Shown here: positions 43,738-61,743 of the stretch, piece by piece
Position numbering within the stretch: position 1 is the first letter of the stretch
Layout of the letters: each line of letters begins with the position of its first letter
Assembly (NCBI RefSeq): GCF_000422945.1
Contig: NZ_AUHA01000002.1
Coordinates: 1,054,001-1,118,000 of the forward strand
Origin: Daejeonella oryzae DSM 19973
Lineage (GTDB): Bacteria; Bacteroidota; Bacteroidia; Sphingobacteriales; Sphingobacteriaceae
DNA length: 64,000 nucleotides
Reading direction: 5' to 3'
Notes under the pieces: model-generated
Database searches by the model: none
What the model was told of the DNA's origin: nothing
What the model saw: only the letters and a program-made list of their open reading frames with translations
Translations under genes and position numbers: made by a program

Positions 43738-44093
43738 TTTTATGTTTTTTTAGTTCAATACCCCCCTTATGAAATAACTATGCCAGAATAGTTTCATTCA
43801 TAACATTGCTTATACACTCATATAAATTTTAAACACCTCATTATGTTCATTTTAAGTACCCTTAATAAATTTTAAAGTATTGTTAGAAGTTACCCCAGGA
43901 TTATAAAATTACCGGTCGGGTTGTATTATTTTTAATACAAGTTCAAATAGTTTGCATTAACCGGACAGTTTTTTTTCTTTTATAAAATCTATTGGCGGGT
44001 AATTTGAGCAGTATATAATGGTTAATATTGCTGCTTGTTATTTTTACACCAGAATAGATCCTTATTATTTTGCTCATCCTGTATAAATTTAAA
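43738..44093. other. Divergent intergenic region between the barrel and GH3 genes
   Basis: This 356-base AT-rich region has no gene. Near its middle, TTGTATTA (43921-43928) and TAATACAA (43933-43940) form a perfect 8-base dyad with a four-T centre, a candidate operator for one or both genes. No full TTTG...TAnnTTTG promoter was found. Confidence 0.5.
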
Positions 44094-45948: not shown

Positions 45949-48900
45949 ATGATAAGAGTATTCTCTCTCTTATTTGTTTTTTTAGCACTGCAGTTTTCCA
46001 CATTTACTGCCCGTTCAAATCCCTCTGATCAATTTTTTTTACAGCATCTGGATAACCGCAACGGTCTTTCTAACAGTGCTATCAATCATATATTTCAGGA
46101 TTCTGACAATATTGTTTGGGTAGCTACCTGGGATGGACTGAATATGTTTGACGGAACATCTTTTCATGTATTTAATTACAGCAAGGAGAATGATTCAAAA
46201 AGCATAGGCAGTAACATCATACAGAATATCAGCGAAGACAGACGCCGGAACATTTGGATCAGCACTATTGAGGGAATTTCGAGGTATGATAAAAAATCAG
46301 GAAAATTTTATAACTATTTCTATAGCCAAATCCAGCGGGGCCGTATCAGCGAGCAGGAATATGAATTAGCGGTAGATACCGGAGGAAACGTTTTCTGTAT
46401 GACTAAAAAATACGGACTGACTTATTATGATGCGGCTGCAGATACATTTCGGGTTTGTACATCCGCTCCGGCTTCATTTCAAAAGCAGCCCTCCGCCCGC
46501 ATCAGCAAGCTGATATTTGATCGCTCCAATCATTTATGGCTATTAAATAATTCAGGCGATTTAGAAATGCTTTCCCGAAACGGAGCTTCCAAATTTACAA
46601 TCAGGCGCACCTACCGGGATAAATCCGAGATTCTGAACTTTTTTTATCTGAATAACCGCATATTTTTTACCACGGCAACCAACCAGATTTTTGAAATAGA
46701 TCCTGAAACCCTGGTCCAAAAATCAGTGAAACAACTCGACCGCGGAATCACCTCTATGATTTATTATAAAAATCATTACCTGCTTGCATGGTCTTCAAAA
46801 GGATACGGGGTTTTTGACGGTCAGTTTCGATCATCATTATTCCTTAATTCAGAAGTTCAGCAGATGAGGGATATAAAAATCACTTCATGGGCCCTGGGAA
46901 GCGAACAGATACTGTGGTACGGAACGGATGGAAATGGAATTATTAAGATTTTTCCCAAAACTAAATTTTTTGCAACTGTCAGCACTTCAGATAACGGAAT
47001 GCCTTACAATAAATCTGTAAGGGCTTTTTGCGAAGAGAATGGAAATCTTTGGGTTGGAACAAAAGGAAGCGGAATTATTAAAATTCCGCAGTTCTGGTCA
47101 GAAACTCAGGGAGCTAAACAACATATTCTTTCGCCTGCAGAGCTTGATAATAATTCCGTTTATGTTCTTAAAAAAGGAACAGACAATCTGATTTACATAG
47201 GCACAGACGGAAAAGGATTAGGAGTATATGATCTTTTAAATAAGAAATTTAGTAAGTGGGCCAATATTAAAGGCTTTAATAAGTATGCCGAATTTGGTTC
47301 TGTGTATGCCATATTGCAGGATAAAGATCAGTCTTTATGGCTTGGAACCAGCGGTTACGGATTAATTCATTTGAAAGTAACCCGCGACCAGAATGGTAAA
47401 TTATCTCTGGATTTTCTCGAACGGTATACCTTTAATAATAAAAATACAGGTCCCGCCAACGATATAATTTATTCCCTTGCCGAAGGCGATAGTAATTATT
47501 TATGGGTGGCCTGTCGTTATGGAGGCCTGAGTTTGCTGGACAAAAAGCAGCGTACTTTTAAAACGTTTAAGGCATTTTCTTATGAAGGCAGTTTGTCAAA
47601 TAATGATGTACTATCACTGTACAAAGATAAAAAGAACAGGATATGGGTGGGAACCAGTTATGGCTTAAACTGGATTGATCAAAAGGATGCAGGCCTGTCA
47701 AAACCCATTTTTAAAAAGTTAACAACTGCAAACGGATTACCCAATAATACCATTCACGCAATTGAGGAAGATGGAGCTGGATATATTTGGGTAAGTACAA
47801 ACAAAGGTCTGGCGAAAGTTCAGCCTTCAGATCTGGAGATCTCCCGTTACCAGCAACTTGATGGTTTGCAAAGCAACGAATTCAGTGATGGTGCCGTTTG
47901 GAAAGATCCTGCCGGATACCTGTATTTCGGCGGAACGTATGGATTCAATTACTTCCTCCCTCAGAATATTATCGGCAGCATTTTAAGGCCTAATCTCTTG
48001 GTTTCAGATATAAAGTTAGGCGGAGATAAAGGAGTTGAGAATAGTGTGGTAGTCTTGCGGCCGGGAATAAATTCTTCTCTTAATTATTCACTTAACCGCA
48101 AGGATAATTATTTCGAACTTCAGCTTAAAGCAGTCAGTTACCTGAATGCCGAAAAATGCGAATATGCCTATTATCTTGCAGGCAATGATAATGAATGGCA
48201 TTATTCAGGTACTTCCGGTAAGGTTTCCTACAGTAATATTCCTCCCGGAAATTATTCATTAATGGTTAAATGGTCTAACGGCGAAGGACTCTGGACCGAT
48301 GAGGTTAAACTGCTCGATTTGGAGGTAAAGCAATATTTTTGGCTCACCCTTCCCGCATTGCTTGTTTATTTTATAATTCTGTCTGCTACCGGCTATACCA
48401 TTTATAGTTATCGTAAAAACAAGCTTCAGATAAAACACCAGCTGGATATGGAACACTTGCTTCGCCAGAAAGAAGAGGATCTGCATCAGGAACAGCTTAG
48501 CTTTTTTACAAACATTACACATGAATTGCAGACCCCGCTGACACTTATTATGGGTTCTACAGAGCGCTTTCTGGAAAAACATAAAGCAGAGGAAAAGAAG
48601 CAGGGGCGTCCGTACTTTCTTTCATTAATTCATCAGCAGGCTTCCCGGCTTTCTTACCTTGTTCAGCAATTGCTGGAGTTTCGCAAAGCGGAAGCCGGTT
48701 ATCTTAAAAGTCAATACAGTTACTTAAACGTATCTGAGTTGCTTGATAAATTATCCAGTCTATTTATCCCATTGGCCGAACAGAACAGCATGCTGTTTAA
48801 GCGTACCATTTCGCCTGATATTATTGCCATGATTGATAAGGATAAACTGGAAAAGATCATGTTCAACCTGTTGTCAAACGCATTTAAACATTCGGGTAAG

Positions 48901-50094
48901 AATGAGAATATCTTCCTGAAAGTGGAAGAAAACAAGCAAACAGGTATGTTGCAAATAGAGGTTGCTAACTCCGGCTGCCATATTCCGTCTGATCAGCTTG
49001 ATAAATTATTTGATAAATTCTATGTGTCGAATATAATGGGTCTTGAAAAATTTGGTGCCGGAATTGGTCTGGCATTTACCCGCGAGCTGGTACTGGTGCT
49101 TAACGGAGAGATAAAAGTAAGTAGTGAAAATAAATGGATCACCTTTAAAGTAGATATTCCACTGCCAGTTCGCGAAAAAGAATTGAAAACTGAAGATAAG
49201 CAGCAGCTGACCAGTAATCCTTCATCTTTTCTCTACAAATCCATGGTTTCCTATCATGAAGAATCCACCCAATCTACAGTTGATAATAACAAGCAGGCTA
49301 TCATACTTGAGTTGGAAACCAATAAGCGGCAAAGCATATTAGTGGTGGAAGATGAATCGGCCATCAGATATTTACTGAAAGATATTTTAAAAGACCATTA
49401 CACCATATTTGAATCAGAAAACGGAAGAGAGGCTCTGGAACTTATACATAAAGTTATTCCGGATTTAATTATTTGTGATGTAATGATGCCCGGAATGAGC
49501 GGCCTGGAATTATGCAATCGGGTTAAAAATGCGCCTGCAACCTGTCACATACCTTTTATAATCTTATCTGCACGGGGAAATATCGAGCATCGTACCGAAG
49601 GATACGAAGTTGGTGCAGATGCGTATATCGCTAAACCATTTCATACCGCACATTTGCAGGTACGAATCAGAAAACTGCTCGAATACAGAAAACGGTTAAA
49701 TGATTTCTTTACCAATGAAAGTGCCGCTTATTCAGTTGTAGAATCAGATCTGGTAGATAGCGACAAGCAATTTTTAGGAAGAATATTATCTGTAATTGAG
49801 AAAAATCTGGGTGAGCCCGATTTTAATGCCGCCCGGCTGGAAAGCGAATTAGCGATGAGCAAAATGCAGCTTTACCGGAAACTAAAAACAATGACCAACT
49901 TAACCCCCGGCGAGTTTATAAAGCATATCCGTTTAAAGCAGGCTGCACATCTGCTACTGTCGACTAATCTTACAGTTTCAGAAATCTTTTACCGCACGGG
50001 ATTTAACAACCAGTCTTATTTTTACCGGGAATTTAAAAAGCGCTACCAATACGCACCCAATGAATACCGCGAGCAGCAGAATGAGCAGGTTTAA
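45949..50094 (+). CDS. Hybrid two-component system regulator (HTCS)
   Basis: A 1382-residue protein from the ATG at 45949, with a signal peptide (about 1-22). The periplasmic sensor (about 25-780) holds two seven-bladed propellers (repeated NIVWVATWDGL, LWVGTKGSG, RIWVGTSYG-like blades) and a Y_Y_Y domain. A membrane helix lies at about 800-822. The histidine kinase follows (NITHELQTPLTLI, phospho-acceptor His858; ATPase near FNLLSNAFKHS). The receiver has Asp1177 in IICDVMMPG, and an AraC-type DNA-binding domain ends the protein (about 1270-1375). One protein thus senses a sugar and activates transcription, almost certainly of the genes just downstream. Confidence 0.96.
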   Translation: MIRVFSLLFVFLALQFSTFTARSNPSDQFFLQHLDNRNGLSNSAINHIFQDSDNIVWVATWDGLNMFDGTSFHVFNYSKENDSKSIGSNIIQNISEDRRRNIWISTIEGISRYDKKSGKFYNYFYSQIQRGRISEQEYELAVDTGGNVFCMTKKYGLTYYDAAADTFRVCTSAPASFQKQPSARISKLIFDRSNHLWLLNNSGDLEMLSRNGASKFTIRRTYRDKSEILNFFYLNNRIFFTTATNQIFEIDPETLVQKSVKQLDRGITSMIYYKNHYLLAWSSKGYGVFDGQFRSSLFLNSEVQQMRDIKITSWALGSEQILWYGTDGNGIIKIFPKTKFFATVSTSDNGMPYNKSVRAFCEENGNLWVGTKGSGIIKIPQFWSETQGAKQHILSPAELDNNSVYVLKKGTDNLIYIGTDGKGLGVYDLLNKKFSKWANIKGFNKYAEFGSVYAILQDKDQSLWLGTSGYGLIHLKVTRDQNGKLSLDFLERYTFNNKNTGPANDIIYSLAEGDSNYLWVACRYGGLSLLDKKQRTFKTFKAFSYEGSLSNNDVLSLYKDKKNRIWVGTSYGLNWIDQKDAGLSKPIFKKLTTANGLPNNTIHAIEEDGAGYIWVSTNKGLAKVQPSDLEISRYQQLDGLQSNEFSDGAVWKDPAGYLYFGGTYGFNYFLPQNIIGSILRPNLLVSDIKLGGDKGVENSVVVLRPGINSSLNYSLNRKDNYFELQLKAVSYLNAEKCEYAYYLAGNDNEWHYSGTSGKVSYSNIPPGNYSLMVKWSNGEGLWTDEVKLLDLEVKQYFWLTLPALLVYFIILSATGYTIYSYRKNKLQIKHQLDMEHLLRQKEEDLHQEQLSFFTNITHELQTPLTLIMGSTERFLEKHKAEEKKQGRPYFLSLIHQQASRLSYLVQQLLEFRKAEAGYLKSQYSYLNVSELLDKLSSLFIPLAEQNSMLFKRTISPDIIAMIDKDKLEKIMFNLLSNAFKHSGKNENIFLKVEENKQTGMLQIEVANSGCHIPSDQLDKLFDKFYVSNIMGLEKFGAGIGLAFTRELVLVLNGEIKVSSENKWITFKVDIPLPVREKELKTEDKQQLTSNPSSFLYKSMVSYHEESTQSTVDNNKQAIILELETNKRQSILVVEDESAIRYLLKDILKDHYTIFESENGREALELIHKVIPDLIICDVMMPGMSGLELCNRVKNAPATCHIPFIILSARGNIEHRTEGYEVGADAYIAKPFHTAHLQVRIRKLLEYRKRLNDFFTNESAAYSVVESDLVDSDKQFLGRILSVIEKNLGEPDFNAARLESELAMSKMQLYRKLKTMTNLTPGEFIKHIRLKQAAHLLLSTNLTVSEIFYRTGFNNQSYFYREFKKRYQYAPNEYREQQNEQV

Positions 50095-50208
50095 ATATCT
50101 GTTTATTTTAATTGGATTTAAGTGGGCAGAATCGCTCAATTTATGTGATTTGTGATTATAGTACAGTAAAATGTAAGCATAGTGCATAAGGGCGCACATC
50201 ATAAAATA

Positions 50209-50216
50209 TAGCTTTG
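50209..50216 (+). promoter_or_regulatory. -7 element of the PUL operon
   Basis: TAGCTTTG is an exact TAnnTTTG, 18 bases before the first PUL gene. No TTTG is present at the expected -33 position, which fits a promoter that needs an activator such as the adjacent HTCS. Confidence 0.5.
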
Positions 50217-50233
50217 GTTTTCAATCGCTGTAT

Positions 50234-52711
50234 ATGCTAACACGTAAAACCAGGCTGTCTATTTTTCCTCTTTTCCTGTTCAGCTTGTTAAATTATTCAT
50301 TCGCCAATAGCCAGCAGCTTTCTCTTAAAGTTGCCGGAGATGATAAGTCGGGTTTTCATGTTGATATATATAATGGCAATCAAAGGCTGGTTGTTAATAC
50401 CGAAGAATTTTATCTCCAACTCTTTAATCTTGATTTAAGTACGGTTTCGAATTTGCTATGGACAGGCCAAAAATGGACTGCTGATAAAAATAGTATCACT
50501 TTAAAAAGAGATTCTTATCTCAAAGAATTTGATGCTAATTTATCTGTTTCAGTAACTTATCAAGTTCTTAATACAAATCTTATTAAAAAGACTGTTGAGT
50601 TGAAACAGCCTTCCATGCCTGGAATGTATTATATTTTAACACAAACTTCCAGGCCTGCAGAAAACCCAAAAAAATATGTTTCATTTGAATATGATGATTT
50701 CCCCGGCGGCTTTGTTCATGAAATATTCCCTGCAGCCGGATTTATTACCCCCGATAATAATATAGTTGGATTTTTAACAGACGCAGGTTATAAAAATCAA
50801 TTTACGAGAAATACCCGTCGCCGTTTCAGCAGTCGTGGAGGTGGTTTTGTAGGTATGCGGAGATTACCGGATCCTAATTTGGTTTCAGTGGCCAATCCCA
50901 CAGAAAGAGCGCAAAATAATCAGTATATCAAACAAACATTTGGGGAAATGTATAATCTGGATGCCGGCACAAAAACAGTTTTAAAAACTCCGGTCTCCTA
51001 TAAAAAAGAAGGAAATTCTGAAGTTATCAGGACTACGGATCTCATTTCCATAAATGGTCATCCGGGAGGCCGGGCCGGAATAGAATTCAGTGCTCCATTC
51101 AAAGATCAGAAGATCTATAGCATTTCTTTTCTGGCTAAAGGGAATACTGATCTGGCTTTAAAGCTTTTCAGAATTAATAAAGGGCAAAAAACTATTGAAC
51201 TGGAACATGGAGTAAAGTACATCGATAACTTTCCCATTGTTGAAGACGAATGGACTCTCTTTGAAGGCAGTATACTCGTTCCCTATATTGAGAGGGATAG
51301 CGTATCCATGTTCATTGGTACACAATCCGGAAAAGAATGCAAACTGCAAATCAAAGATTTAAAATTTGTGGAGCATCAGCCACAGCAGGAACCTTTTAAC
51401 CTGCTTCCGCTTGGCGAAAAGATTGAGAAAACGACCTATGTTTTTGTTGAGCCCTGGAAATCGCATCAGCAATTTATGATCTCATCACAGGTCCGGTTAG
51501 CCGAGGGAAAAGGCTTCAAGGGATCTTTGATTGAAAAAATGCTGTATGCCAATTTCAATATGCTAACCTGGATTACAGATACAAAGGATTTTACTCCGCT
51601 AAATGTTCCCAACATGAATTATGCACCCGATATGTATAATAGGGATTCTTTCTTCTCAACCATAGCATCTTATAATAAAGAGTTGAACCTTTCCATATGG
51701 GATCAATGGTCGAAAACGCAAACGCCCGAGGGAGGTATTGGCACAATCATAACACCGTTAATGGGATCAATAGAAGCGAAAGATAATGAAGCCACTATCG
51801 AATGGCTGATCTGGGCGATGATGAATAAACGTCGGTTCGGAGTTATTCTTCCTCAGGAGAAAATTAAGAAAGCGGTTGATTATGTATTGAATGAATTTGA
51901 TGCCGATGGCGATGGAAAATGTGAATCCCATTTCTCCTTAAGTCAGGTAGATATTGTTGATTTTAATCCCAAAACGGATAGGTTGGGAGTTAACCAGGGT
52001 ATGCTCGCCATCGCTTTAAGGACAATAAAGGAGTTGGGCTTTAATATTTCTGAAGAGTATATTCAAAAGGCAGAGCAGGAATATCGAAACTTTTATGACC
52101 CAAAAAGAAAACATATTCTGTTCGACAGGAATTTCCCCGACATCATTACACTTACAGACCTGGAGCCGGAATTTTTCTCCCTTTGGTTATTCAACAGGCC
52201 TCTGCTAACAGATGAAATGGTGAAAAATCACCTCGATCAGATCCCGGTTTTAAATAAAGTATCCAATTCGCCCCATCCGGAATATGGCACCACTGCACCC
52301 ATATGCGTAAGATTAACTAATGATAGCAAAGGGTATGCTTACCTCAGCGGCAATTATCAGCCATTTGAAAAATTCGGTGAAGAAAATTACAGCGATGGTA
52401 AAAGTGACGGATTTTATTATAACGGCGGAAGCTGGTTCAGGGCTGAATATTGTGCTTATGTAGTTGGATTAAAGCATGGCTGGAAAAAAGCCAGTATCCT
52501 AATGGAAAACAGGGCCTGGGCAGAGATCTACTTAAATCCTAAATGGCCCTTCAGTAAAGAATTTATTCCAACAAAATGGAATACAACAGATACCTGGTGG
52601 CCCTCAACCAGGGGCCTTAGCTGGAATGTGTTTATCCTGATGGCCAATGAAGTTGCCGGTCTGCGAACTCCTGAAATGGATCCTGATTTTCTAAAAACGA
52701 ATACCAAATAA
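50234..52711 (+). CDS. Exported beta-sandwich / CBM-like / alpha-toroid protein, candidate new glycoside hydrolase
   Basis: An 825-residue protein I cannot place in a named family. A signal peptide (about 1-25, ending SFANSQ) is followed by a beta-sandwich (about 30-260). A jelly-roll segment similar to CBM4/9-type modules comes next (about 265-390: GGRAGIEFSAPFKDQKIYSI ... EWTLFEGSILVP). A C-terminal alpha-helical region (about 415-815) looks like an (alpha/alpha)6 toroid, with acidic patches such as NYAPDMYNRDSFF, GGIGTIITP and NTTDTWWPSTRGLSWN. That order is common in six-hairpin glycosidases. Its location at the head of a PUL supports a glycan-cleaving role. The linkage is unknown. Confidence 0.65.
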   Translation: MLTRKTRLSIFPLFLFSLLNYSFANSQQLSLKVAGDDKSGFHVDIYNGNQRLVVNTEEFYLQLFNLDLSTVSNLLWTGQKWTADKNSITLKRDSYLKEFDANLSVSVTYQVLNTNLIKKTVELKQPSMPGMYYILTQTSRPAENPKKYVSFEYDDFPGGFVHEIFPAAGFITPDNNIVGFLTDAGYKNQFTRNTRRRFSSRGGGFVGMRRLPDPNLVSVANPTERAQNNQYIKQTFGEMYNLDAGTKTVLKTPVSYKKEGNSEVIRTTDLISINGHPGGRAGIEFSAPFKDQKIYSISFLAKGNTDLALKLFRINKGQKTIELEHGVKYIDNFPIVEDEWTLFEGSILVPYIERDSVSMFIGTQSGKECKLQIKDLKFVEHQPQQEPFNLLPLGEKIEKTTYVFVEPWKSHQQFMISSQVRLAEGKGFKGSLIEKMLYANFNMLTWITDTKDFTPLNVPNMNYAPDMYNRDSFFSTIASYNKELNLSIWDQWSKTQTPEGGIGTIITPLMGSIEAKDNEATIEWLIWAMMNKRRFGVILPQEKIKKAVDYVLNEFDADGDGKCESHFSLSQVDIVDFNPKTDRLGVNQGMLAIALRTIKELGFNISEEYIQKAEQEYRNFYDPKRKHILFDRNFPDIITLTDLEPEFFSLWLFNRPLLTDEMVKNHLDQIPVLNKVSNSPHPEYGTTAPICVRLTNDSKGYAYLSGNYQPFEKFGEENYSDGKSDGFYYNGGSWFRAEYCAYVVGLKHGWKKASILMENRAWAEIYLNPKWPFSKEFIPTKWNTTDTWWPSTRGLSWNVFILMANEVAGLRTPEMDPDFLKTNTK

Positions 52712-52753
52712 TATGATTTATCATCAACTAAGACTAACCTAATCAGCATTTAA

Positions 52754-55700
52754 ATGAAACGAAAAGTCAATCACATGTGGCTAGTACTGCTTGTACTTGT
52801 ATTCACAAATCAGGGGCTCTTTGCCCAGACCAGAATTACCGGAACGGTTAAAGATGTAAATGGATTAAGTTTGCCCGGAGTTTCTGTAACACAACTTAAT
52901 ACCCAAAACGCTACTGTCACCAATGCTCAGGGCAATTATTCCATCACCTTAACTGCAGGTGCATCTCAATCCCTGGTTTTTAGTTATTTGGGGTTTTTAG
53001 CCCAAACGGTAGCTGTTGCAGATAACCCCGTTATTAATATTATCCTAAAAGAAGATCAGGTAGCTTTAAGCGAAGTAGTGGTTGTTGGTTACACCTCCCA
53101 GAAGAAATCATCTATAACCGGAGCAGTTAGTACTGTGGATATGGCTGATTTAGAAAAAACAAGAATAGCTGATGTTGCACAGGCCTTACAGGGTCAGGTA
53201 GCAGGAGTTTTTGTTTCAGCTAATACCGGAGCACCCGGCGATGGTATAAAGGTGCGAATCAGGGGTGAAGGTACTTTAGGAAATAACGATGTTCTTTATG
53301 TGATAGACGGAGTACCTACACGGGATATTTCTTTTCTGAATCAATCAGACGTAAAGTCGATGACTGTATTAAAAGATGCATCGGCAACTGCAATTTACGG
53401 TTCAAGAGCTTCGGGCGGGGTAGTTGTGATTACCACCAATAGCGGCCAGCAGGGCAAAATGAATCTGGAGCTTGATTATTTCTCGGGCCTCTATAATGCA
53501 ACCAATCTCCCTGAAATGTTGAATACAGATCAGTATTTAATGGTAAAAGATAAAGCCTGGCACAATACATTGGGTAATCCGGCTGATGGGATAAGCCCAT
53601 ACGCTGCCGATAGAACCAGAGTCGATTTGGCCAATACGAGTTGGTTAAATGAATTATTTACTACAGGGAGATCTCAAAATTTTCAGGCTTCGGCAAGTGG
53701 AGGAACGGAAAAATTACAGTATCTGTTATCGGCTGGTTATTTTGGTCAAAACGGTATTGTGGAATCAGATAATGATAAATATCAGCGTCTTAACCTAAGA
53801 ACTAATATTAATGCCAATGTTTCAGACCGTTTTAAAGTAGGAACAAACCTGCAGCTGACTTATGCTAAGCAGGATAGAATTGCTTCCAGCGGAGAAAGTG
53901 TAATCCGCTATGCGGTATTAAGAACTCCTGTAATACCTGTTTTTAAAAGCCCGACAGATCCTACTTACAGCGAATCTAATCCTTACACCGATTTGCCTTT
54001 TTATCTTAATAATAACAGCAATGGAGGATGGTCCAGAAATTATGAATTTGTTGGTAACCCGCTGGCCTTTGTAAATTTTACTGATGATGAACGCAAAAGT
54101 TATCAAACCTTTGGAAATGTATTTGGCGAATTTGCTTTCTTAAAAGACAAATCCTTGAAATTCCGTTCTAACGTTGGGGCTGATATTGCTTTTTCACACA
54201 ATAAAAATTTCGCACAAAACTTTGGTGATGACAATGATAATGATCCCGGAGAACTATATCCGGGTTTGGGCCGCAACAACAGGCCAAATAACCTGGACGA
54301 AAACCGCGGAGAAGCCATGACATTTACTTTTAGTAATACCTTAAATTATGTTAAAACCTTTAATGAAAAACATAGTTTAAATGCGCTGGCAGGAACAGAA
54401 TACATAAGTTTTAAAACTTCTGGAATTGGTGGAAGCAGACAAAACTTTGATAATGCTACCAATACTTTCCGATACTTGGATTACGGTAGTTTGCCCAATC
54501 AGCGCAGTGGCGGTTCTGCCAACGAATGGAACTTGCTATCTTTCTTTGCCTCACAAACCTATGGTTACGAGAATAAATATTTTTTAACCTCAACAATTCG
54601 GGCAGATGCTTCCAGCCGCTTTGGCCCAAATAATAAATGGGGGTATTTCCCTTCCCTTTCGGCAGGATGGAAAGTTTCTGATGAGAAGTTTCTTGAAAAT
54701 GCCGAATGGATATCTAATTTACAATTCAGGGCCAGCTGGGGGAAATCCGGAAATCAGGAAATACCCAATTATGCTTACGAAACTATTGTAAGTCAGGTTG
54801 GCGGCGTGGTGAATATAGATCGCTACGGTAACCCGGATCTGAAATGGGAAACTACGGCACAAACCAATTTTGGTTTAGATCTGGCCGTGTCAAATAATAA
54901 ACTGTCTTTGTCTGCGGATTACTTTATTAAAAATACAAGCGATATCATATTACCGGTTGGATTACCGGCTGTATCTGTAGGAGTAATACAACGGACTTTT
55001 ATAAATGCAGGTGAAGTAACTAACAAAGGGTTTGAATTTGGCTTGAATTACAGAAATAATGATCGTGCCTTTAAATATGGTGCCAATGCAAACATCGCAA
55101 CCCTTACCAACCGGGTAGAAAAGCTATTTACATTTTTACCGAATATTACAGACGATGCTACCCGTACCAGGACAGAAGCAGGCCAGCCCATTAGTTCATA
55201 TTTCGGCTACGTGTTTGATGGAATATACCAGAATACATCTGAAGTTAGCAGCCATTTATTTACCAATACTAACGGCACCCAGCCGGGAGATATTAAATTC
55301 AAAGACCTGGATGGCGATGGCCAGATAAACGCCAACGACCGTAATTTTATAGGTAATCCAATTCCAAAACTTACCTATGGATTCGCTTTTTCATCAGAAT
55401 TTAAGCAATTCGACTTTTCGTTTTTATTGCAGGGTGTTCAGGGTGTCGACCGCTATAATGATATGAAACAAATTCTGAATTATGATACCAGACCGTTTAA
55501 TTCTACAACGGATGTATTAGACAGTTGGGATGGTGAAGGAAGCAGCAACACTACGCCAAGGGTAACTTTTAACAATAATGGCGGTGGTAATGTATCGAGC
55601 GTTTTTGTCGAAGATGCTTCCTACTTCAGATTAAAAAACATTGAAATAGGCTACACTTTTAATGCAAATAAGATTGGAATACAGAACCTCCGCTTGTATG

Positions 55701-55828
55701 CATCCGGACAAAATGTTTTTACTGTTACTAAATATACAGGCCTTGATCCGGAGTCTACTTCATTAATAGACAAAGGAACTTATCCTCAATCTACCGCCTT
55801 TCTTTTTGGCGTAAGGGTTAAACTATAA
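52754..55828 (+). CDS. SusC/RagA family TonB-linked outer-membrane transporter
   Basis: A 1024-residue receptor with a signal peptide (about 1-24, ending LFAQ). A carboxypeptidase-like N-terminal domain (about 27-105, TGTVKDVNGLSLPGVSV) comes next, then a TonB-box-like LSEVVVVGYTSQKK and a plug with the SusC signature LYVIDGVPTRDIS and LKDASATAIYGSRASGGVV. A 22-strand barrel ends with a terminal Leu (GVRVKL). There is no N-terminal STN domain, consistent with control by the HTCS rather than an anti-sigma factor. It imports oligosaccharides captured by SusD. Confidence 0.97.
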   Translation: MKRKVNHMWLVLLVLVFTNQGLFAQTRITGTVKDVNGLSLPGVSVTQLNTQNATVTNAQGNYSITLTAGASQSLVFSYLGFLAQTVAVADNPVINIILKEDQVALSEVVVVGYTSQKKSSITGAVSTVDMADLEKTRIADVAQALQGQVAGVFVSANTGAPGDGIKVRIRGEGTLGNNDVLYVIDGVPTRDISFLNQSDVKSMTVLKDASATAIYGSRASGGVVVITTNSGQQGKMNLELDYFSGLYNATNLPEMLNTDQYLMVKDKAWHNTLGNPADGISPYAADRTRVDLANTSWLNELFTTGRSQNFQASASGGTEKLQYLLSAGYFGQNGIVESDNDKYQRLNLRTNINANVSDRFKVGTNLQLTYAKQDRIASSGESVIRYAVLRTPVIPVFKSPTDPTYSESNPYTDLPFYLNNNSNGGWSRNYEFVGNPLAFVNFTDDERKSYQTFGNVFGEFAFLKDKSLKFRSNVGADIAFSHNKNFAQNFGDDNDNDPGELYPGLGRNNRPNNLDENRGEAMTFTFSNTLNYVKTFNEKHSLNALAGTEYISFKTSGIGGSRQNFDNATNTFRYLDYGSLPNQRSGGSANEWNLLSFFASQTYGYENKYFLTSTIRADASSRFGPNNKWGYFPSLSAGWKVSDEKFLENAEWISNLQFRASWGKSGNQEIPNYAYETIVSQVGGVVNIDRYGNPDLKWETTAQTNFGLDLAVSNNKLSLSADYFIKNTSDIILPVGLPAVSVGVIQRTFINAGEVTNKGFEFGLNYRNNDRAFKYGANANIATLTNRVEKLFTFLPNITDDATRTRTEAGQPISSYFGYVFDGIYQNTSEVSSHLFTNTNGTQPGDIKFKDLDGDGQINANDRNFIGNPIPKLTYGFAFSSEFKQFDFSFLLQGVQGVDRYNDMKQILNYDTRPFNSTTDVLDSWDGEGSSNTTPRVTFNNNGGGNVSSVFVEDASYFRLKNIEIGYTFNANKIGIQNLRLYASGQNVFTVTKYTGLDPESTSLIDKGTYPQSTAFLFGVRVKL

Positions 55829-55939
55829 ATGTTCATTTCAAATATTATAGATTATGAAATCTGCATGGGCGATCACAGACAATCCGAAATAAATAATGGT
55901 CGGGCACATGCAAATTAATCAGCAATAAAAATTATTTAT

Positions 55940-57424
55940 ATGAAAGCAATATATAAAATAGGGTTCGTACTGGCCATTGCATCTGTTACAAGTTGTAAAA
56001 AACAGTTAACCACAGAACCAATAGGCCTGTTAACTTTAGATCAGGTAAATGCAACTCCAACCCTTAATACGGTAGAAACTTCCGTACGATCTTCATATCA
56101 GCTGCTTAGCAACAGACTAAATATTTTAGCTGAATGGGATTGGGGAGGCGGTCTGGTATTTCAGAACGATTACATCATGCAGGACATTGCTTCTGATGAT
56201 ATGGAGAAAAAGTGGAATGCAGATGGCGACCAGCCCTGGATAGATGATATCAACAACTTCACGTTTACTTCTACAAATGGCGGCCCCAACGGTCTGTGGA
56301 AATATAATTATGAGGGTATTAAAAGGTTGAATATTGCTATAAATTTTCTAACCAAGCCCGAAATAGAATCTATAACCGGCATTTCTACCACCCGTAAAAA
56401 CCAGCTTTTAGGCGAAGCCTATTTTTTAAGGTCGTATTATTATTTCAGCCTGGTGACCAATTTTGGAGATGTACCTCTGATTTTAGCGCCGGTGCTCACA
56501 TTTCAGGAAGCTTTTGATGTAGCAGTAAGAACCGATAAAAACCTTGTGTGGGATCGTATTAAAGGCGACTTGCTTACAGCAAAAACCTTGTTGCCTAATG
56601 CTAAATTCTCTTCTGATACAGAAAAATGGCGGATTAGCAAGGGAGCGGTAATTGCCCTGCAGGCTAAATCAGCTTTATATACTCAAAAATGGGCCGATGT
56701 TATTACCCTGGTTTCTGAATTAGAAACATTGGGGTTTTATAGTCTTAACGCTAATTATTTCGATTCCTTTAATGCTTCTAAAGAATTTGCTGATAACGAA
56801 GTAATTTTTTCTTACGATCATCAAACCAATCAGACTCCTAGAAATGGAAATGGTATTTGCGCTCCCTTAGGATGGGGATTTTTCGCTCCAAGTACTGATT
56901 TTCTGAACGCTTTTGAAGCGAATGATCCCAGAAAGTTTTACACTGTTGATGCACCTAACCAAAACGTGAATAAAATGCTTGGCAGTTTAGATGGAACCAA
57001 TAAAGGTAATGATGATGCCGCCATCAATAAAGTATATATCCGTTTTGCAGATGTGTTGCTTTGGAAAGCGGAAGCCTATATCGAAACAGGTAATTTACAG
57101 GGTGCCATAGATATTATAAACCAGGTTAGAGCCAGAGCCAGAAATACCATTACTGCTGCAGGCACCATTCCTCCGGCCGGTACTTTACCAGATAGAGCAG
57201 CTTCAGCGGATAAAGCTACAGTTACCGGATGGCTGATATCTGAAAGAAGAGTAGAGCTTGGTTTCGAATCACAAAGAATGGCTGATTTAAAAAGATGGGG
57301 AACCGCAAAAGCAGTATTGGCCGCTAAGGGTAAAAATTTCCAGGACAGACATTATTTATACCCAATCCCACAGAGTGAAATTGATGCTTCTGCCGGAACT
57401 TTGACGCAAAATGCAGGGTATTAA
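55940..57424 (+). CDS. SusD/RagB family glycan-binding lipoprotein
   Basis: A 494-residue surface lipoprotein: the signal ends VTSC (Cys19). Family landmarks are AYFLRSYYYFSLVTNFGDVPLIL, the helical TPR-like core, VYIRFADVLLWKAEAYIETGN, LISERRVELGFESQRMADLKRWG and the C-terminal HYLYPIPQSEID. It caps the SusC barrel and binds the target glycan outside the cell. It is separated from SusC by 111 bases, which contain only a 12-codon frame (55854) that is probably meaningless. Confidence 0.96.
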   Translation: MKAIYKIGFVLAIASVTSCKKQLTTEPIGLLTLDQVNATPTLNTVETSVRSSYQLLSNRLNILAEWDWGGGLVFQNDYIMQDIASDDMEKKWNADGDQPWIDDINNFTFTSTNGGPNGLWKYNYEGIKRLNIAINFLTKPEIESITGISTTRKNQLLGEAYFLRSYYYFSLVTNFGDVPLILAPVLTFQEAFDVAVRTDKNLVWDRIKGDLLTAKTLLPNAKFSSDTEKWRISKGAVIALQAKSALYTQKWADVITLVSELETLGFYSLNANYFDSFNASKEFADNEVIFSYDHQTNQTPRNGNGICAPLGWGFFAPSTDFLNAFEANDPRKFYTVDAPNQNVNKMLGSLDGTNKGNDDAAINKVYIRFADVLLWKAEAYIETGNLQGAIDIINQVRARARNTITAAGTIPPAGTLPDRAASADKATVTGWLISERRVELGFESQRMADLKRWGTAKAVLAAKGKNFQDRHYLYPIPQSEIDASAGTLTQNAGY

Positions 57425-57430
57425 TTTCCT

Positions 57431-57450
57431 TCTGATATTAACTTATCAGA
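57431..57450 (+). promoter_or_regulatory. Hairpin between the SusD and GH130 genes
   Basis: TCTGATA (57431-57437) and TATCAGA (57444-57450) form a perfect seven-base stem seven bases after the SusD stop. No T-run follows, so an RNA processing or stability element that sets different levels for surface proteins and cytoplasmic enzymes is possible. Confidence 0.4.
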
Positions 57451-57515
57451 TGTAAAATGAGTTAACTCATAATTGCATGAATTTTATTTTCCATGATCCA
57501 TCTCATTAGTTTAAA

Positions 57516-58577
57516 ATGAATGATATAGCCAAACGTTTTACAGAAAATCCTTTATTGTCACCCGCTGATCTGAAGTCCAGCAGCGAAGGATTGGAAATTA
57601 CCTGTTTACTAAATCCGGGAGTTTTTAAATTTGAAAACAAAACCTGGCTGATAGTACGAGTAGCCGAAAGGCCCGGGCAAAAAGAAGGAATAATTTCTTT
57701 TCCGATACTAACGGAATCGGGTACTGAAATTATAGAAATTCAGCTGGATGATGCAGATCTCATAGCTACTGATGCAAGAGTTATAAATTACAAGAAAGTA
57801 GATTACCTGACTACTCTTTCGCATCTGCGCTTACTTTGCAGCGATGATGGAATTCGTTTTTACGAGCCTGAAGGGTATCCTTTACTAATGGGCGAAGGGA
57901 TTTTGCAGAGTTTTGGTATAGAGGATTGCCGGGTTACATTTCTGGATGATAAATATTATCTCACATTTACTGCCGTATCCGGCAATGGGGTTGGTGTTGG
58001 AATGCGGAGCACACATGATTGGAAGCAATTTGAATCACATGGCATGATCATGCCTCCTCATAATAAAGATTGCGCAATTTTTGAAGAGAAAATAAATGGT
58101 AAATACTTTGCACTGCACCGTCCCAGCAGTGTAGATATTGGAGGTAATTTTATCTGGCTTGCCGAATCACCGGATGCAATTCATTGGGGAAATCATAAGT
58201 GCATTGCAAGAACCCGCGAAGGCCATTGGGATAGTGCCCGGGTTGGCGCAGGGGCATCTCCCATCAAAACTGAAAAGGGCTGGCTGGAAATTTATCATGG
58301 AGCCAACTCTCAGCATCAGTATTGTCTGGGCGCTTTACTTTTAGATCTGGATGACCCTTCAAAAGTTTTGGCACGTACAGAAGATCCAATTATGGTTCCC
58401 ACAGCGCCTTACGAGTTAAGCGGTTTTTTTGGGAATGTAGTATTTACCAACGGTCATCTTCTTGATCCCGACGGCGACACACTTACACTTTATTATGGCG
58501 CTTCTGATGAGTTTGTTTGCGGTGCGCACTTTTCTATAAATGAAATTTTCACAATGTTAAAATACAATCATGCTTAA
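57516..58577 (+). CDS. Glycoside hydrolase family 130 enzyme (beta-mannoside phosphorylase/mannosidase)
   Basis: A 353-residue five-bladed-propeller enzyme without a signal peptide, so predicted cytoplasmic. GH130 motifs are NPGVFKFENKTWLIVRVAERP, TTLSHLRLLCSDDGIRF, GIEDCRVTF with the conserved catalytic Asp137, and CAIFEEKINGKYFALHRPS. GH130 enzymes cleave beta-mannosides, most by phosphorolysis to mannose 1-phosphate, and some (beta-1,2-mannosidases) by hydrolysis. The N-terminal ENPLLSPADLK and SHLRL pattern reminds me of the beta-1,2-mannoside group, but that is a memory-based inference. The last eight bases overlap the MFS gene. Confidence 0.9.
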   Translation: MNDIAKRFTENPLLSPADLKSSSEGLEITCLLNPGVFKFENKTWLIVRVAERPGQKEGIISFPILTESGTEIIEIQLDDADLIATDARVINYKKVDYLTTLSHLRLLCSDDGIRFYEPEGYPLLMGEGILQSFGIEDCRVTFLDDKYYLTFTAVSGNGVGVGMRSTHDWKQFESHGMIMPPHNKDCAIFEEKINGKYFALHRPSSVDIGGNFIWLAESPDAIHWGNHKCIARTREGHWDSARVGAGASPIKTEKGWLEIYHGANSQHQYCLGALLLDLDDPSKVLARTEDPIMVPTAPYELSGFFGNVVFTNGHLLDPDGDTLTLYYGASDEFVCGAHFSINEIFTMLKYNHA

Positions 58578-59880
58578 TAAACTGAAAGTAGAAATAGCGC
58601 ATTTTAAGAGCCAGCCTCATAATTTTCAGATTCTGATTATGACTAATCTGGTATATGCTCTTGTATTGCCGGTTATAGATATTTTTGTGGCCGCTTATGT
58701 AATGCGAAGTTCCAATGATCCCACAAAAGTGGTGATCTATCAGCTTACAATATACACCGGTATACCCCTTACATTCCTGTTAAACGGCTGGCTGCTTAAA
58801 CATTTTAATATCCGTAAACTTTATTCGGCAGGCATGCTTTTGAGTGGCATTTCCATGATGATTATGATGTCATTAAAAACGCTTGATCTGGTAGGTATCG
58901 GCTTTGCCGGAATAACGATGGGTATGTCTTTCGGTTTTTACTGGGCCAACCGCGATTATCTTGCTCTGGCAATTACCAATGACGGCAACCGGAATTATTA
59001 TTACGGCCTGGAAACGTTTTTTTATACCATCATTGCCGTAGTTATTCCGGTAGCAATTGGCTGGTTTATTGAGACTCAGGGAGGAAATGTGGAAAGTCTT
59101 CAGGCAGCGCAAATTAACCAGGCTTATAAAATCATAACCGGGGTAGTGTTTGCAATTACAATTGTTGCCTCAATTGTTTGTTTCAGGGGAACTTTCAGTA
59201 ATCCTTTACAAAAGCAATATGTGTTCTTTAAATTCCATCCTTTATGGAATAAATTATTATTTCTGGCTTCATTAAAAGGATTGGTTCAGGGATTTCTGGT
59301 TACAGCTCCTGCTATGCTGATTATGCTGTTATTGGGAAAAGAAGGTGCGCTGGGAACTGCTCAATCAGTTGGAGCCATTATTGCCGCCATTATGATGTAT
59401 ATCGTTGGCCGGATTTCCAAACCAGAACATCGCTTAAAAATATTTGCAGCCGGTCTTATTTTATTTGCCGTTGCAGCGCTTTTAAACGGTATCTTATTTA
59501 ACCAGGTCGGTGTGATTTTGTTCATGCTATTTCTGCTGGTAGCTAAGCCACTAATGGACCTGGCTTATTTTCCTATACAATTTAAAGTGATCGACATTGT
59601 TTCTAAAATCGAAAATCGGGGCGAATTCGCTTACATTTTAAACCATGAGGCCGGATTATATGTGGGCAGATTTCTGGGAGCCGGAACTTTTCTTCTTTTA
59701 GCCTATGGGTTTTCTGTGGAAATTGCTTTGCGCTATGCAATCATAATTGTTGCCGTACTGCAGTTGAGCTCGATCTGGGTTGCAAAAAACATCATTAATA
59801 AAGGCAAAGAACTTGCACCGGATACCAAAGAAATCAGCGAAGATGAAATTACGGGTCTGGTAAGCGAAGTTATCGTTTAA
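58570..59880 (+). CDS. MFS family sugar transporter
   Basis: A 436-residue inner-membrane protein with about 12 helices and a short central cytoplasmic loop (about 215-225). It has no signal peptide. MFS features include LNGWLLKHFNIRKLYSAGMLL (helix 2-3 loop), GISMMIM and MGMSFGFYWANRDYLAL. Translation starts eight bases before the GH130 stop, so the two are translationally coupled. That pairing suggests it brings the short mannoside made in the periplasm to GH130. The substrate is inferred from context only. Confidence 0.85.
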   Translation: MLNKLKVEIAHFKSQPHNFQILIMTNLVYALVLPVIDIFVAAYVMRSSNDPTKVVIYQLTIYTGIPLTFLLNGWLLKHFNIRKLYSAGMLLSGISMMIMMSLKTLDLVGIGFAGITMGMSFGFYWANRDYLALAITNDGNRNYYYGLETFFYTIIAVVIPVAIGWFIETQGGNVESLQAAQINQAYKIITGVVFAITIVASIVCFRGTFSNPLQKQYVFFKFHPLWNKLLFLASLKGLVQGFLVTAPAMLIMLLLGKEGALGTAQSVGAIIAAIMMYIVGRISKPEHRLKIFAAGLILFAVAALLNGILFNQVGVILFMLFLLVAKPLMDLAYFPIQFKVIDIVSKIENRGEFAYILNHEAGLYVGRFLGAGTFLLLAYGFSVEIALRYAIIIVAVLQLSSIWVAKNIINKGKELAPDTKEISEDEITGLVSEVIV

Positions 59881-59929
59881 CAGAATTGTAGTTCAAAGTT
59901 TAATTCATTAACTAAATCAGCAATACTCA

Positions 59930-61678
59930 ATGAAGCATATTTTAAAGATCTCCATTATTGGGCTAGTGTTTACGGCCTGCAGTCAGTCTGTACAAATTCC
60001 GGTTACGCAGATTGAAAGCTCTCCTGTAAAGCAACAGAATTTGGCACGTGTAGATTTAATGTCTAACGTTCCCCAGCCTTTAAAAATAATTGATTACCAG
60101 CAGCTGGCCCTAAGGTTTGACAGTACCGTGTATGATTTTAATGCCAAAGGCGAGTTTTGGCCGATGGTATGGAGAGACAGCACCAATAAAAATTATCCCC
60201 AGACAGTTGTTGGTTTATATACCGCTGTGGGAGATGTGCGTCAGGGGCCGGCTAATAACAAAGGGATGTTTCATGAAGCATTGGGTGTTATGGGTGCCAT
60301 TATGGGCGCTTCATTGGTTGGCGTTGATAAAAGCAATCAGCAAAACCTGAATTATGTAGGCATGCTGAAAAATTATTTTAATAAAGATACCGGCTGGGAT
60401 ATAATGATGAATAATACAGCTCCTGAAGTTGCACTTCTTGGGGGCGGTTACGGCCGAGATTGGTGGTATGATGTATATCCCAATGTATTGTTTTATGCCA
60501 TCTATAATCAATATCCCAACGAGCCGGGTTTTGAGGAAATTGCCCGCAAAATTGCCGATAAGTTTTATAAAGCAGATTCTATTCTGAACGGCAACTACGA
60601 CTATTCCTATTTTGATTATGGTCAGATGAAACCTATGAAAACCCATATTTGCGCACAGCCCGATGCTGCTGCCGGACATGCCTGGGTATTATATTCGGCC
60701 TATAAGAAGTTTGGAGATCAAAAATATCTTAATGGTGCACTAAGCGCCTTAAAAGCTTTGGAAGCACAGAAACTGAATCCGACCTACGAAGTTTTAATGC
60801 CTTTTGGAGCTTATTTATCTGCCCGGATTAATTCAGAAATGGGAAAAGATTTTGATGAGAATAAAATGATGAGCTGGACTTTTGATGGAACACCGATCTG
60901 TCGCGAAGGATGGGGCGTACTGGTAGGTAACTGGAACGGGACAGATATTTCTGGAATTGTTGGAAGTACGGTAGATCATGGCGGATACGGGTTTTTAATG
61001 AATACGTATGATGCCGCCTGGCCGCTTATTCCGATGGTGCGTTATAATCAGTCATATGCAAATGCCATCGGAAAATGGATGTTGAATGCCGCAAATGCCG
61101 CCCGGTTTTTCTATCCTGAATACATGCCTGATGAAAATGAAACCATTCCTCAATTTGCATCGGTTACCAAAGGAGTTATTGGTTACGAAGGGATCGTGAA
61201 AAAATCCACATTTGACAAATATGCCCAGATAAAATCTCCGGTTGCTCAGGGCGACGGGCCCAATTGGGTTCCCGGTAAAAATCCCGAAGTCTCCCAATTC
61301 AGCGTTTACGGAAGTGCCCATGTAGGGATATTTGGAAGTATTATCCGTAAAACGGAAGTAGAAGGGATTATGCAGCTTGACTTACTAGCCACTGATTTCT
61401 ATCGTGATGAGGCTTATCCTTCATATCTGTATTACAATCCCTTTACAGAAAATAAAACAGTTTCGATCTCCTCAGAAAATGGACAAAAAAGAGATTTATA
61501 TAATACCATTTCGGCCAAATTTATAGCACGAAACGTATCTTCTTCAACTCAGATTAATCTGCCTCCGCAAACTGCTGCGGTAATTGTTTCTGTACCAGCC
61601 GGAGGCAAAGTAACCTATGAAGGGAGCAAAATGATGGTAAACGGAATTGTTGTGGACTATAAGTTTAAGGGAAAATAG
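59930..61678 (+). CDS. Lipoprotein with alpha-helical toroid-like fold, candidate glycan-active enzyme
   Basis: A 582-residue lipoprotein (signal ending VFTAC, Cys17) that I cannot place in a family. After about 50 residues of linker it is mostly helical, with recurring Trp/Tyr/Asp-rich turns typical of (alpha/alpha) toroids: GEFWPMVWRDSTN, GRDWWYDVYPNVLFYAI, AGHAWVLYSAYKKFG, TPICREGWGVLVGNWNG and FFYPEYMPDENE. A beta-rich C-terminal segment follows (about 475-575). Such folds occur in glycoside hydrolases and polysaccharide lyases. It is last in the PUL and ends at a clean terminator. Location in the periplasm or on the surface is unresolved. Confidence 0.6.
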   Translation: MKHILKISIIGLVFTACSQSVQIPVTQIESSPVKQQNLARVDLMSNVPQPLKIIDYQQLALRFDSTVYDFNAKGEFWPMVWRDSTNKNYPQTVVGLYTAVGDVRQGPANNKGMFHEALGVMGAIMGASLVGVDKSNQQNLNYVGMLKNYFNKDTGWDIMMNNTAPEVALLGGGYGRDWWYDVYPNVLFYAIYNQYPNEPGFEEIARKIADKFYKADSILNGNYDYSYFDYGQMKPMKTHICAQPDAAAGHAWVLYSAYKKFGDQKYLNGALSALKALEAQKLNPTYEVLMPFGAYLSARINSEMGKDFDENKMMSWTFDGTPICREGWGVLVGNWNGTDISGIVGSTVDHGGYGFLMNTYDAAWPLIPMVRYNQSYANAIGKWMLNAANAARFFYPEYMPDENETIPQFASVTKGVIGYEGIVKKSTFDKYAQIKSPVAQGDGPNWVPGKNPEVSQFSVYGSAHVGIFGSIIRKTEVEGIMQLDLLATDFYRDEAYPSYLYYNPFTENKTVSISSENGQKRDLYNTISAKFIARNVSSSTQINLPPQTAAVIVSVPAGGKVTYEGSKMMVNGIVVDYKFKGK

Positions 61679-61711
61679 TACTCCTTTAAAAATATTTCCT
61701 AAAATTTATAT

Positions 61712-61743
61712 AGAGGCTGTGTTGAAAATACAGCCTCTTTTTA
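61712..61743 (+). terminator. Intrinsic terminator at the end of the PUL
   Basis: AGAGGCTGT (61712-61720) and ACAGCCTCT (61730-61738) form a perfect nine-base stem followed by a T-run to 61742. Confidence 0.92.

What the first reader, a model, noticed from the sequence alone, without database searches (positions are those of the whole stretch)
45949..61743. Compact PUL with two unrecognised toroid-like proteins and one GH130, and no classical endo-acting enzyme
The locus has an HTCS, SusC, SusD, an inner-membrane transporter and only one family I can name (GH130). The initial depolymerisation must fall to the proteins at 50234 and 59930 or to enzymes elsewhere. A beta-mannoside-containing glycan is the most economical target, possibly with an uncommon linkage. 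This is the best candidate for an undescribed degradation system.
Basis: partly seen in the sequence, partly recalled or inferred. Interest (0 to 1): 0.7.

Follow-up and report, generated by a model that had tools for sequence, protein, structure and literature searches.

The report
Mannoside-degrading operon with two unnamed enzymes
This is a real bacterial sugar-harvesting gene cluster, with relatives in many Bacteroidota, that most likely breaks down a mannose-containing glycan with an enzyme family that the libraries searched here do not name.

Summary
Window 45949-61743 is a compact polysaccharide utilisation operon (HTCS, T825, SusC, SusD, GH130, MFS, T582) ending in a 12-pair terminator-like hairpin. 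T825 (50234-52711) and T582 (59930-61678) match no Pfam or NCBIfam family over cut-off and no solved relative by sequence; models of both are (alpha/alpha) toroids with beta domains, as in many glycosidases. They are not equivalent. Of 19 sister loci fetched for holding T582, 13 have the whole set; T825 is in 2 of these 13, and 10 have no further gene, leaving GH130 and T582 as the only enzyme candidates. Of 44 T582-bearing genomes in a 300-genome order sample, 36 have the same GH130 clade within 6 kb. Fused relatives (PKD, LamG, T9SS tail) show that the family is exported. The GH130 is closest to Uhgb_MS and the beta-1,2-mannobiose phosphorylase Lin0857, so a beta-1,2-type mannoside is the best guess. 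Relatives add GH2 beta-mannosidase, phosphomannose isomerase and, in 20 of 113 distinct loci, a GH13 alpha-glucosidase, so a mixed alpha-Glc/beta-Man glycan is a live rival. Activity, endo action, linkage and source are inferred. CAZy itself could not be searched. Probably new enzyme families in a known kind of system.

The parts
45949..50094 (+). HTCS: hybrid two-component sensor (Reg_prop propeller, Y_Y_Y, HisKA, HATPase_c, receiver, AraC-type HTH)
   Evidence: Pfam; 45-54% identical orthologues in the same position
50234..52711 (+). T825: exported protein (my reading of its N-terminus) of unnamed family; N-terminal beta-sandwich, CBM-like insert (about 257-407), C-terminal (alpha/alpha) toroid (411-808). 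Accessory enzyme candidate
   Evidence: no family match; CBM_4_9 weak in 19 of 46 members scanned, not in the window protein; model (pLDDT 82.9, pTM 0.84); Foldseek top GH116 E 1.1e-12
52754..55828 (+). SusC-type TonB-dependent transporter
   Evidence: TIGR04056 836.6 bits, cut-off 368.25
55940..57424 (+). SusD-type outer membrane lipoprotein
   Evidence: PF07980 113.1 bits, cut-off 23.1
57516..58577 (+). GH130 mannoside phosphorylase candidate, no signal peptide seen by eye (cytoplasmic), Uhgb_MS / Lin0857 clade
   Evidence: PF04041; 9erg 533.9 bits, 5b0p (Lin0857) 294.5 bits; D137 and K184 (numbers checked) aligned with Lin0857 and Teth514_1789
58570..59880 (+). MFS transporter, overlaps GH130 by 8 bp
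   Evidence: PF07690 43.3 bits, cut-off 33.4
59930..61678 (+). T582: exported or lipoprotein (Cys17 in FTACSQ, by eye) of unnamed family, (alpha/alpha) toroid plus C-terminal beta-sandwich; core glycanase candidate
   Evidence: model (pLDDT 75.3, pTM 0.84); found in 44 of 300 order genomes
61712..61738 (+). terminator-like hairpin after the last gene
   Evidence: 12 pairs, T-rich tail; the scan finds 20 such sites in the region against 14.8 expected, this being the longest stem listed

Best explanation
The locus is a utilisation operon for a beta-mannoside glycan, most likely with beta-1,2-type linkages. T582, a toroid glycoside hydrolase of an unnamed family, cuts the glycan outside the cytoplasm; SusC/SusD imports fragments; T825, an optional second toroid hydrolase with a built-in carbohydrate-binding domain, trims or debranches them; the MFS protein carries the short product over the inner membrane; GH130 phosphorolyses it to mannose-1-phosphate and a shorter sugar. 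The HTCS senses a product and switches the operon on. Shown by sequence: gene content, operon conservation, GH130 membership, no match of T582 and T825 to the libraries searched. Inferred: enzyme activity of both toroids, endo action, linkage, cell compartment, direction of flow.
For: Of 44 T582-bearing genomes in a 300-genome order sample, 41 have the Uhgb_MS-clade GH130 (20 expected), 36 of them within 6 kb of T582 (from; not corrected for phylogeny). Of 19 sister loci fetched for T582, 13 hold the whole HTCS-SusC-SusD-GH130-MFS-T582 set: 10 with no other ORF of 120 aa or more between HTCS and T582, 2 with T825, 1 (L036) with an M19-peptidase-like and an unmatched protein. T825 shares a gene run with T582 in 57 of 80 loci fetched for T825, with SusC in 51, SusD 49, GH130 43, MFS 40, HTCS 25 (several contigs are short). 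Fused T582 forms carry LamG and T9SS tails (LamG in 20, Por_Secre_tail in 19 of 32 members scanned), so the family acts outside the cytoplasm. Partner clusters in 113 distinct loci, each named from one representative: GH2 beta-mannosidase 9, phosphomannose isomerase 6, ROK kinase 3. GH130 is closest to Uhgb_MS and Lin0857; PMC8950772 (passages) lists beta-1,2-mannobiose among the products of both. Seven acidic residues of T582 (D64, E116, E287, D339, E420, D442, D489) are kept in 68-70 of 70 relatives. One operon on plasmid pPP5 of Persicobacter holds two T582 paralogues.
Against: No activity data for T582 or T825. The GH130 clade is wider than T582 (136 of 300 genomes against 44), and in 20 loci without T582 beside it, it never shares direction with an adjacent SusC/SusD pair, so it does not by itself fix the substrate of the operon; beside a glucuronate isomerase in 3 of these 20 it may even serve a uronate glycan. 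Three of 44 T582 genomes lack the GH130 clade and 5 carry it far away. Six of 19 T582 loci are incomplete, three of them with no SusD, GH130 or MFS gene called beside T582 (L035, L042, L045). Foldseek matches are fold-level (TM on query 0.31-0.37 for the first 18 T582 rows, 0.32-0.34 for the first 18 T825 rows, about 10% identity, large rmsd). Alpha-glucosidases in 20 of 113 loci suggest that the glycan may not be a pure mannan. Uhgb_MS is described as a mixed-linkage synthase, so its natural linkage is not settled. The closest NCBIfam GH130 model (BtaManbiosPhlase) scores below its cut-off (393.5 of 550).
Confidence: 0.5

Rival explanations
1. The target is a mixed glycan of alpha-glucose and beta-mannose (for example a bacterial exopolysaccharide). 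T582 and/or T825 cut the alpha-glucosyl part, an alpha-glucosidase trims it, and GH130 splits a beta-mannosyl disaccharide in the cytoplasm.
For: A GH13 whose closest solved relatives are oligo-1,6-glucosidases (one representative; about 26 extra N-terminal residues, read by eye as a signal peptide) is in 20 of 113 distinct loci, 19 of the 20 with T582, in Flavobacteriia and Bacteroidales, and a 59-61% identical one is in the Persicobacter plasmid operon. The 7 loci with the GDE_C/GH94-like protein c15 share none with the GH13, as if one replaced the other. T825's fold neighbours include kojibiose and cellobiose phosphorylases and a dextran dextrinase.
Against: The window's operon has no alpha-glucosidase, and none of the 19 sister T582 loci holds a member of the GH13 cluster. 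Specificity was inferred from similarity only.
Confidence: 0.25
2. The operon serves fungal alpha-mannan with beta-1,2-mannose caps, as in Candida, with T582 a GH76-like alpha-mannanase.
For: GH130 beta-1,2-mannosidases sit in yeast-mannan loci of Bacteroides (PMC4599007, passages). The window's genome has two GH92 genes elsewhere and one weak GH76. A GH76 (6u4z) is among T582's fold neighbours, E 2.4e-3.
Against: No GH92 or GH76 in this operon. The GH130 here shows no signal peptide by eye, whereas PMC4599007 says that phosphorylases are cytoplasmic and hydrolases secreted. T582 has no GH76 Pfam match.
Confidence: 0.1
3. T582 and T825 are not hydrolases: they bind, epimerise or eliminate (the only Pfam whisper for T582 is the C5-epimerase toroid).
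For: C5-epim_C weak in 7 of 32 T582 relatives, best E 4.7e-4, and below cut-off in the window protein. Catalytic residues were not mapped on a template.
Against: T582 has seven nearly invariant acids. No uronate enzyme is named in the operon. T825 resembles glycosidases in fold and has a CBM-like insert. In 10 of 13 complete sister operons no other extracytoplasmic enzyme candidate is present.
Confidence: 0.12
4. Plant beta-1,4-mannan or host N-glycan system.
For: GH130 also contains beta-1,4 phosphorylases that serve these glycans (PMC8950772, passages).
Against: The GH130 is far from the beta-1,4 enzymes (Uhgb_MP 118.5 bits against Uhgb_MS 533.9); no GH26 was found in the genome; no GH18, GH20, GH5 or GH26 in the operon. 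Other endo-mannanase families elsewhere in the genome were not searched.
Confidence: 0.05

Closest known systems
GH130 Uhgb_MS (PDB 9erg/9erh/9eqq) and Lin0857 (5b0p)
   Same: Window GH130 aligns end to end, 533.9 and 294.5 bits; GIEDxRV and NKD segments kept
   Different: Physiological role of Uhgb_MS not read here; the window enzyme is untested
Beta-1,2-glucan degradation by clan GH-S endo-glucanases (GH144, GH162, GH192-194; PMC12102758, passages)
   Same: Works-like analogue: toroid endo-enzymes for a 2-linked glycan; that a phosphorylase follows is recalled
   Different: No beta-1,2-glucanase among the 50 Foldseek rows shown for T582 and no Pfam match; sugar and phosphorylase family differ
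GH127/GH146 beta-L-arabinofuranosidases (and BT_1003, GH142 by recall)
   Same: Best Foldseek hits of the T582 model
   Different: TM about 0.35, about 10% identity, no Pfam match; not members
GH116 (TxGH116), then GH94- and GH65-type phosphorylases (family numbers of the latter recalled)
   Same: Best Foldseek hits of the T825 model: N-terminal beta-sandwich plus toroid
   Different: TM about 0.34, extra CBM-like insert, no Pfam match
Bacteroides yeast-mannan PULs (PMC4599007, passages)
   Same: PUL with a GH130 aimed at beta-1,2-mannose
   Different: Those GH130s are secreted hydrolases lacking the phosphate-binding residues; no alpha-mannan enzyme in this operon

Membership tests
SusC/D-type PUL with HTCS | adjacent SusC and SusD with a hybrid sensor and glycan enzymes in one operon | tested here: met
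   whole set in 13 of 19 sister T582 loci
GH130 | Pfam PF04041 above cut-off | tested here: met
   167.8 bits, cut-off 26
GH130 | invariant catalytic Asp | tested here: met
   D137 in GIEDCRV aligned with the E-D pair of Lin0857 and Teth514_1789; equated with Glu141-Asp142 of BT3780 (PMC4599007) by inference, BT3780 not aligned
GH130 phosphorylases (not hydrolases) | three basic phosphate-binding residues, no signal peptide | tested here: inconclusive
   no signal peptide by eye; the exact phosphate ligands were not mapped
GH130 beta-1,2 group | Lys equivalent to BT3780 Lys199 | tested here: inconclusive
   K184 matches Lys in two beta-1,2 enzymes; BT3780 itself not aligned
NCBIfam BtaManbiosPhlase equivalog | 550 bits or more | tested here: not met
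   393.5 bits
any Pfam/NCBIfam/PHROG/PDB family for T582 | curated cut-off or significant sequence match of the toroid domain | tested here: not met
any CAZy family for T582 or T825 | match to a CAZy/dbCAN profile | not testable with these tools
   no CAZy library on hand
Clan GH-S (GH144 etc.) for T582 | three clan-defining residues and fold | not tested
   no such enzyme in the 50 Foldseek rows shown of 752; residues not aligned
GH116 for T825 | GH116 sequence profile | tested here: not met
   no GH116 family among the 12 Pfam families hit by any of 46 members; fold similarity only
Yeast alpha-mannan PUL | GH92/GH76/GH99 in the locus (features recalled) | tested here: not met
   none in the operon; two GH92 and a weak GH76 elsewhere; GH99 elsewhere not searched
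any | enzymatic activity on a defined glycan | not testable with these tools
   needs assay

The most novel reading that the evidence does not exclude
T582 founds a new glycoside hydrolase family of endo-beta-1,2-mannanases, the mannan counterpart of the clan GH-S beta-1,2-glucanases, and this operon is a widespread Bacteroidota pathway for a 2-linked beta-mannan or beta-mannosyl glycan (for instance a protist or bacterial storage polymer) that has had no known degrader; T825 founds a second family with a CBM inserted between its sandwich and toroid.
Probability: 0.28. Interest if true: 0.78.

Novelty: new variant of a known kind. Interest (0 to 1): 0.52.

Why it matters
T582 has no entry in Pfam, NCBIfam or the PDB, yet recurs beside one GH130 clade in Sphingobacteriia, Flavobacteriia, Bacteroidales and Cytophagales; T825, equally unnamed, shares a gene run with it in 57 of 80 loci. 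That makes the activity directly testable with three or four proteins. If T582 depolymerises a beta-1,2-type mannoside, it supplies the first step of a pathway of which mainly the phosphorylases are known, and would suggest that such glycans are ordinary food for bacteria of places such as fens (named in several isolate labels).

Tried and rejected
T582 and T825 as relatives of each other or of the other toroid-like proteins in these loci (c9, c15, m7): hhalign gave no support (best T582 against m7, probability 12%). The first T582 alignment was shallow (Neff 1.9), so one of 70 sequences was built (Neff 3.1). Transcription signals: 41 sigma-70-like sites against 48 expected, so no promoter claim. 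Rfam: no family in 43000-64000. GH3 at 44070 as part of the system: matched in none of 20 loci. Viral fold search for T825: phage tail, CBM-like and GH65-like pieces among the rows shown. T825 and T582 as a fixed pair: rejected, 7 of 8 genomes with a lone T825 lack T582 and the same 7 lack the GH130 clade, though all have other GH130 genes (completeness unstated, several are MAGs). Census of operon neighbours: 83 of 110 picked proteins (from 206) were scanned and 25 of 127 families are shown, so rare families cannot be excluded; a GH115 was among those shown; nine proteins were scanned singly, two of them from a complete operon (L036). The 119 loci include six contigs held twice and two (L166, L172) in which no T582 or T825 ORF was called; counts above use the 113 distinct ones, except that one search uses the 80. 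Papers, listings only unless said: 1 of 1; 10 of 10; 8 of 8; 40 of 635; 20 of 21; 40 of 75; 10 of 11; 10 of 3,501; none listed names an endo-beta-1,2-mannanase or this operon in title or abstract start. Subscription journals are mostly not held, and the GH130 diversity paper PMC7660257 is not held.
Full report
Observation. The seven genes are present and intact, in one direction, with short gaps. HTCS, SusC, SusD, GH130 and MFS are recognised by Pfam; T825 and T582 are not recognised over cut-off by Pfam, NCBIfam or PHROGs, nor credibly by PDB sequences, and profiles of their families do no better over the toroid domain. A hairpin with a T-rich tail follows at 61712-61738. CAZy profiles were not available.

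What T825 and T582 look like. T825 (46-sequence alignment) is modelled as an N-terminal beta-sandwich, a jelly-roll-like insert and a C-terminal toroid (pLDDT 82.9). The insert resembles CBM22 (TM on target 0.64-0.65) and 19 of 46 members hit CBM_4_9 weakly, best E 4.8e-4. The best whole-chain fold matches are GH116, then an exo-beta-D-arabinanase, a dextran dextrinase and cellobiose-type phosphorylases, all with low TM. T582 (20-sequence alignment, pLDDT 75.3) is a toroid with a C-terminal beta-sandwich; best matches are GH127 and GH146 enzymes, again fold-level. Its best model is well ahead of the other four (75.3 against 62.0-69.1), so details should not be trusted.

Which one matters. T582 is found in 44 of 300 genomes of the order (three of them only 36-37% identical) and, with a profile, in 20 of 395 of the phylum sample (one at E 7.4e-4); T825 in 3 of 395 of the phylum sample (single sequence). 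Of 19 T582 loci fetched, 13 have the whole set HTCS-SusC-SusD-GH130-MFS-T582. Ten of these 13 have no other ORF of 120 aa or more between HTCS and T582, 2 carry T825, and 1 carries an M19-peptidase-like protein and an unmatched one. So the minimal operon has two enzyme candidates, GH130 and T582, and GH130 shows no signal peptide by eye. Of 44 T582 genomes, 41 have the same GH130 clade, 36 within 6 kb, 5 elsewhere, 3 not at all. The reverse is not true: 136 of 300 genomes have the GH130 clade, and in 20 such loci without T582 beside it (two of them from genomes that hold T582 elsewhere) it never shares direction with an adjacent SusC/SusD pair; it lies beside another unclassified protein, m7, in 4 and a glucuronate isomerase in 3. 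T825 was found at 80 loci across Bacteroidota (85 confirmed, 80 kept), in one gene run with T582 in 57 of them.

Where T582 works. Twenty-five T582 relatives in the loci examined are 1035-1083 aa; a representative carries LamG and a T9SS sorting tail, and in a 32-member scan, 20 of them long forms, LamG is matched in 20 and Por_Secre_tail in 19. Three loci hold both a short and a long form, as does plasmid pPP5 of Persicobacter psychrovividus, whose operon reads GH130, MFS, T582, SusC, SusD, LamG protein, alpha-glucosidase, long T582, with an HTCS divergent. The family is thus exported and, for the long forms, probably surface-bound. The window's T582 has a Cys at position 17 in a lipoprotein-like context (by eye; position checked).

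Which glycan. The GH130 matches Uhgb_MS (533.9 bits), then Lin0857 (294.5) and Teth514_1789 (173.5), well above the beta-1,4 enzymes such as Uhgb_MP (118.5). PMC8950772 (passages) lists Lin0857 as beta-1,2-mannobiose phosphorylase and Uhgb_MS as a mixed-linkage mannoside synthase with beta-1,2-mannobiose among its products. PMC4599007 (passages) says that phosphorylases are cytoplasmic and hydrolases secreted, and names a lysine as beta-1,2 determinant; K184 here matches a lysine kept in two beta-1,2 enzymes, but BT3780 itself was not aligned. In 113 distinct related loci, clusters named from one representative each add GH2 beta-mannosidase in 9, phosphomannose isomerase in 6 and ROK kinase in 3, which fits mannose. 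They also add a GH13 alpha-glucosidase in 20 and a GDE_C/GH94-like protein in 7 others, which keeps a mixed glycan open. The window's genome has no GH26 match, two GH92 and one weak GH76 elsewhere.

Mechanism. Most likely: T582 outside cuts, SusCD imports, T825 trims when present, MFS imports, GH130 phosphorolyses. This resembles beta-1,2-glucan use, where toroid endo-enzymes of clan GH-S act (PMC12102758, passages). I file T582 and T825 in no known family.

Verdict. In the listings seen (several of them capped) I found no description of this operon or of an endo-beta-1,2-mannanase; that search is limited to open papers.

Noticed in passing
L088:17454-18788 and cluster c9 (14 distinct loci): A third unclassified protein of about 445 aa, lipoprotein-like and toroid-like by eye, recurs in these loci in both SusCD-type and ABC-transporter-type lineages; no Pfam match for the representative.
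   Followed up: partly
L195, L196, L200, L211 (cluster m7): About 735-aa protein with a weak, below-cut-off C5-epim_C/GH88 signal next to the same GH130 clade where T582 is not beside it; unrelated to T582 by hhalign.
   Followed up: partly
L198, L199, L214: The GH130 clade sits beside a glucuronate isomerase (UxaC) gene, hinting at beta-mannosyl-uronate substrates in some genomes.
   Followed up: no
L160, L161, L164, L165, L167, L168, L169: ABC-transporter-like version of the system: long T582 with GH2 beta-mannosidase and GDE_C/GH94-like protein in all 7, MalK-type ATPase in 5 and a divergent GH130 in 5.
   Followed up: partly
L215 (plasmid pPP5 of Persicobacter psychrovividus) and L216 (pAT2 of Aureibacter tunicatorum): The operon lies on large plasmids, typed non-mobilizable by PLSDB although pPP5 has mobC and relaxase genes nearby; T825 has no match in the plasmid collection.
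   Followed up: partly
L104, L078, L097, L102, L107, L139, L140: T825 without T582 or the GH130 clade in the genome, so it may have a use of its own.
   Followed up: partly
L117:12413-14026: A GH32 gene lies between T825 and the alpha-glucosidase in Lutibacter flavus.
   Followed up: no
window 44070-45806: GH3 with NagZ-like scores, below the model's cut-off, just upstream of the HTCS; not matched in the 20 sister loci examined.
   Followed up: partly
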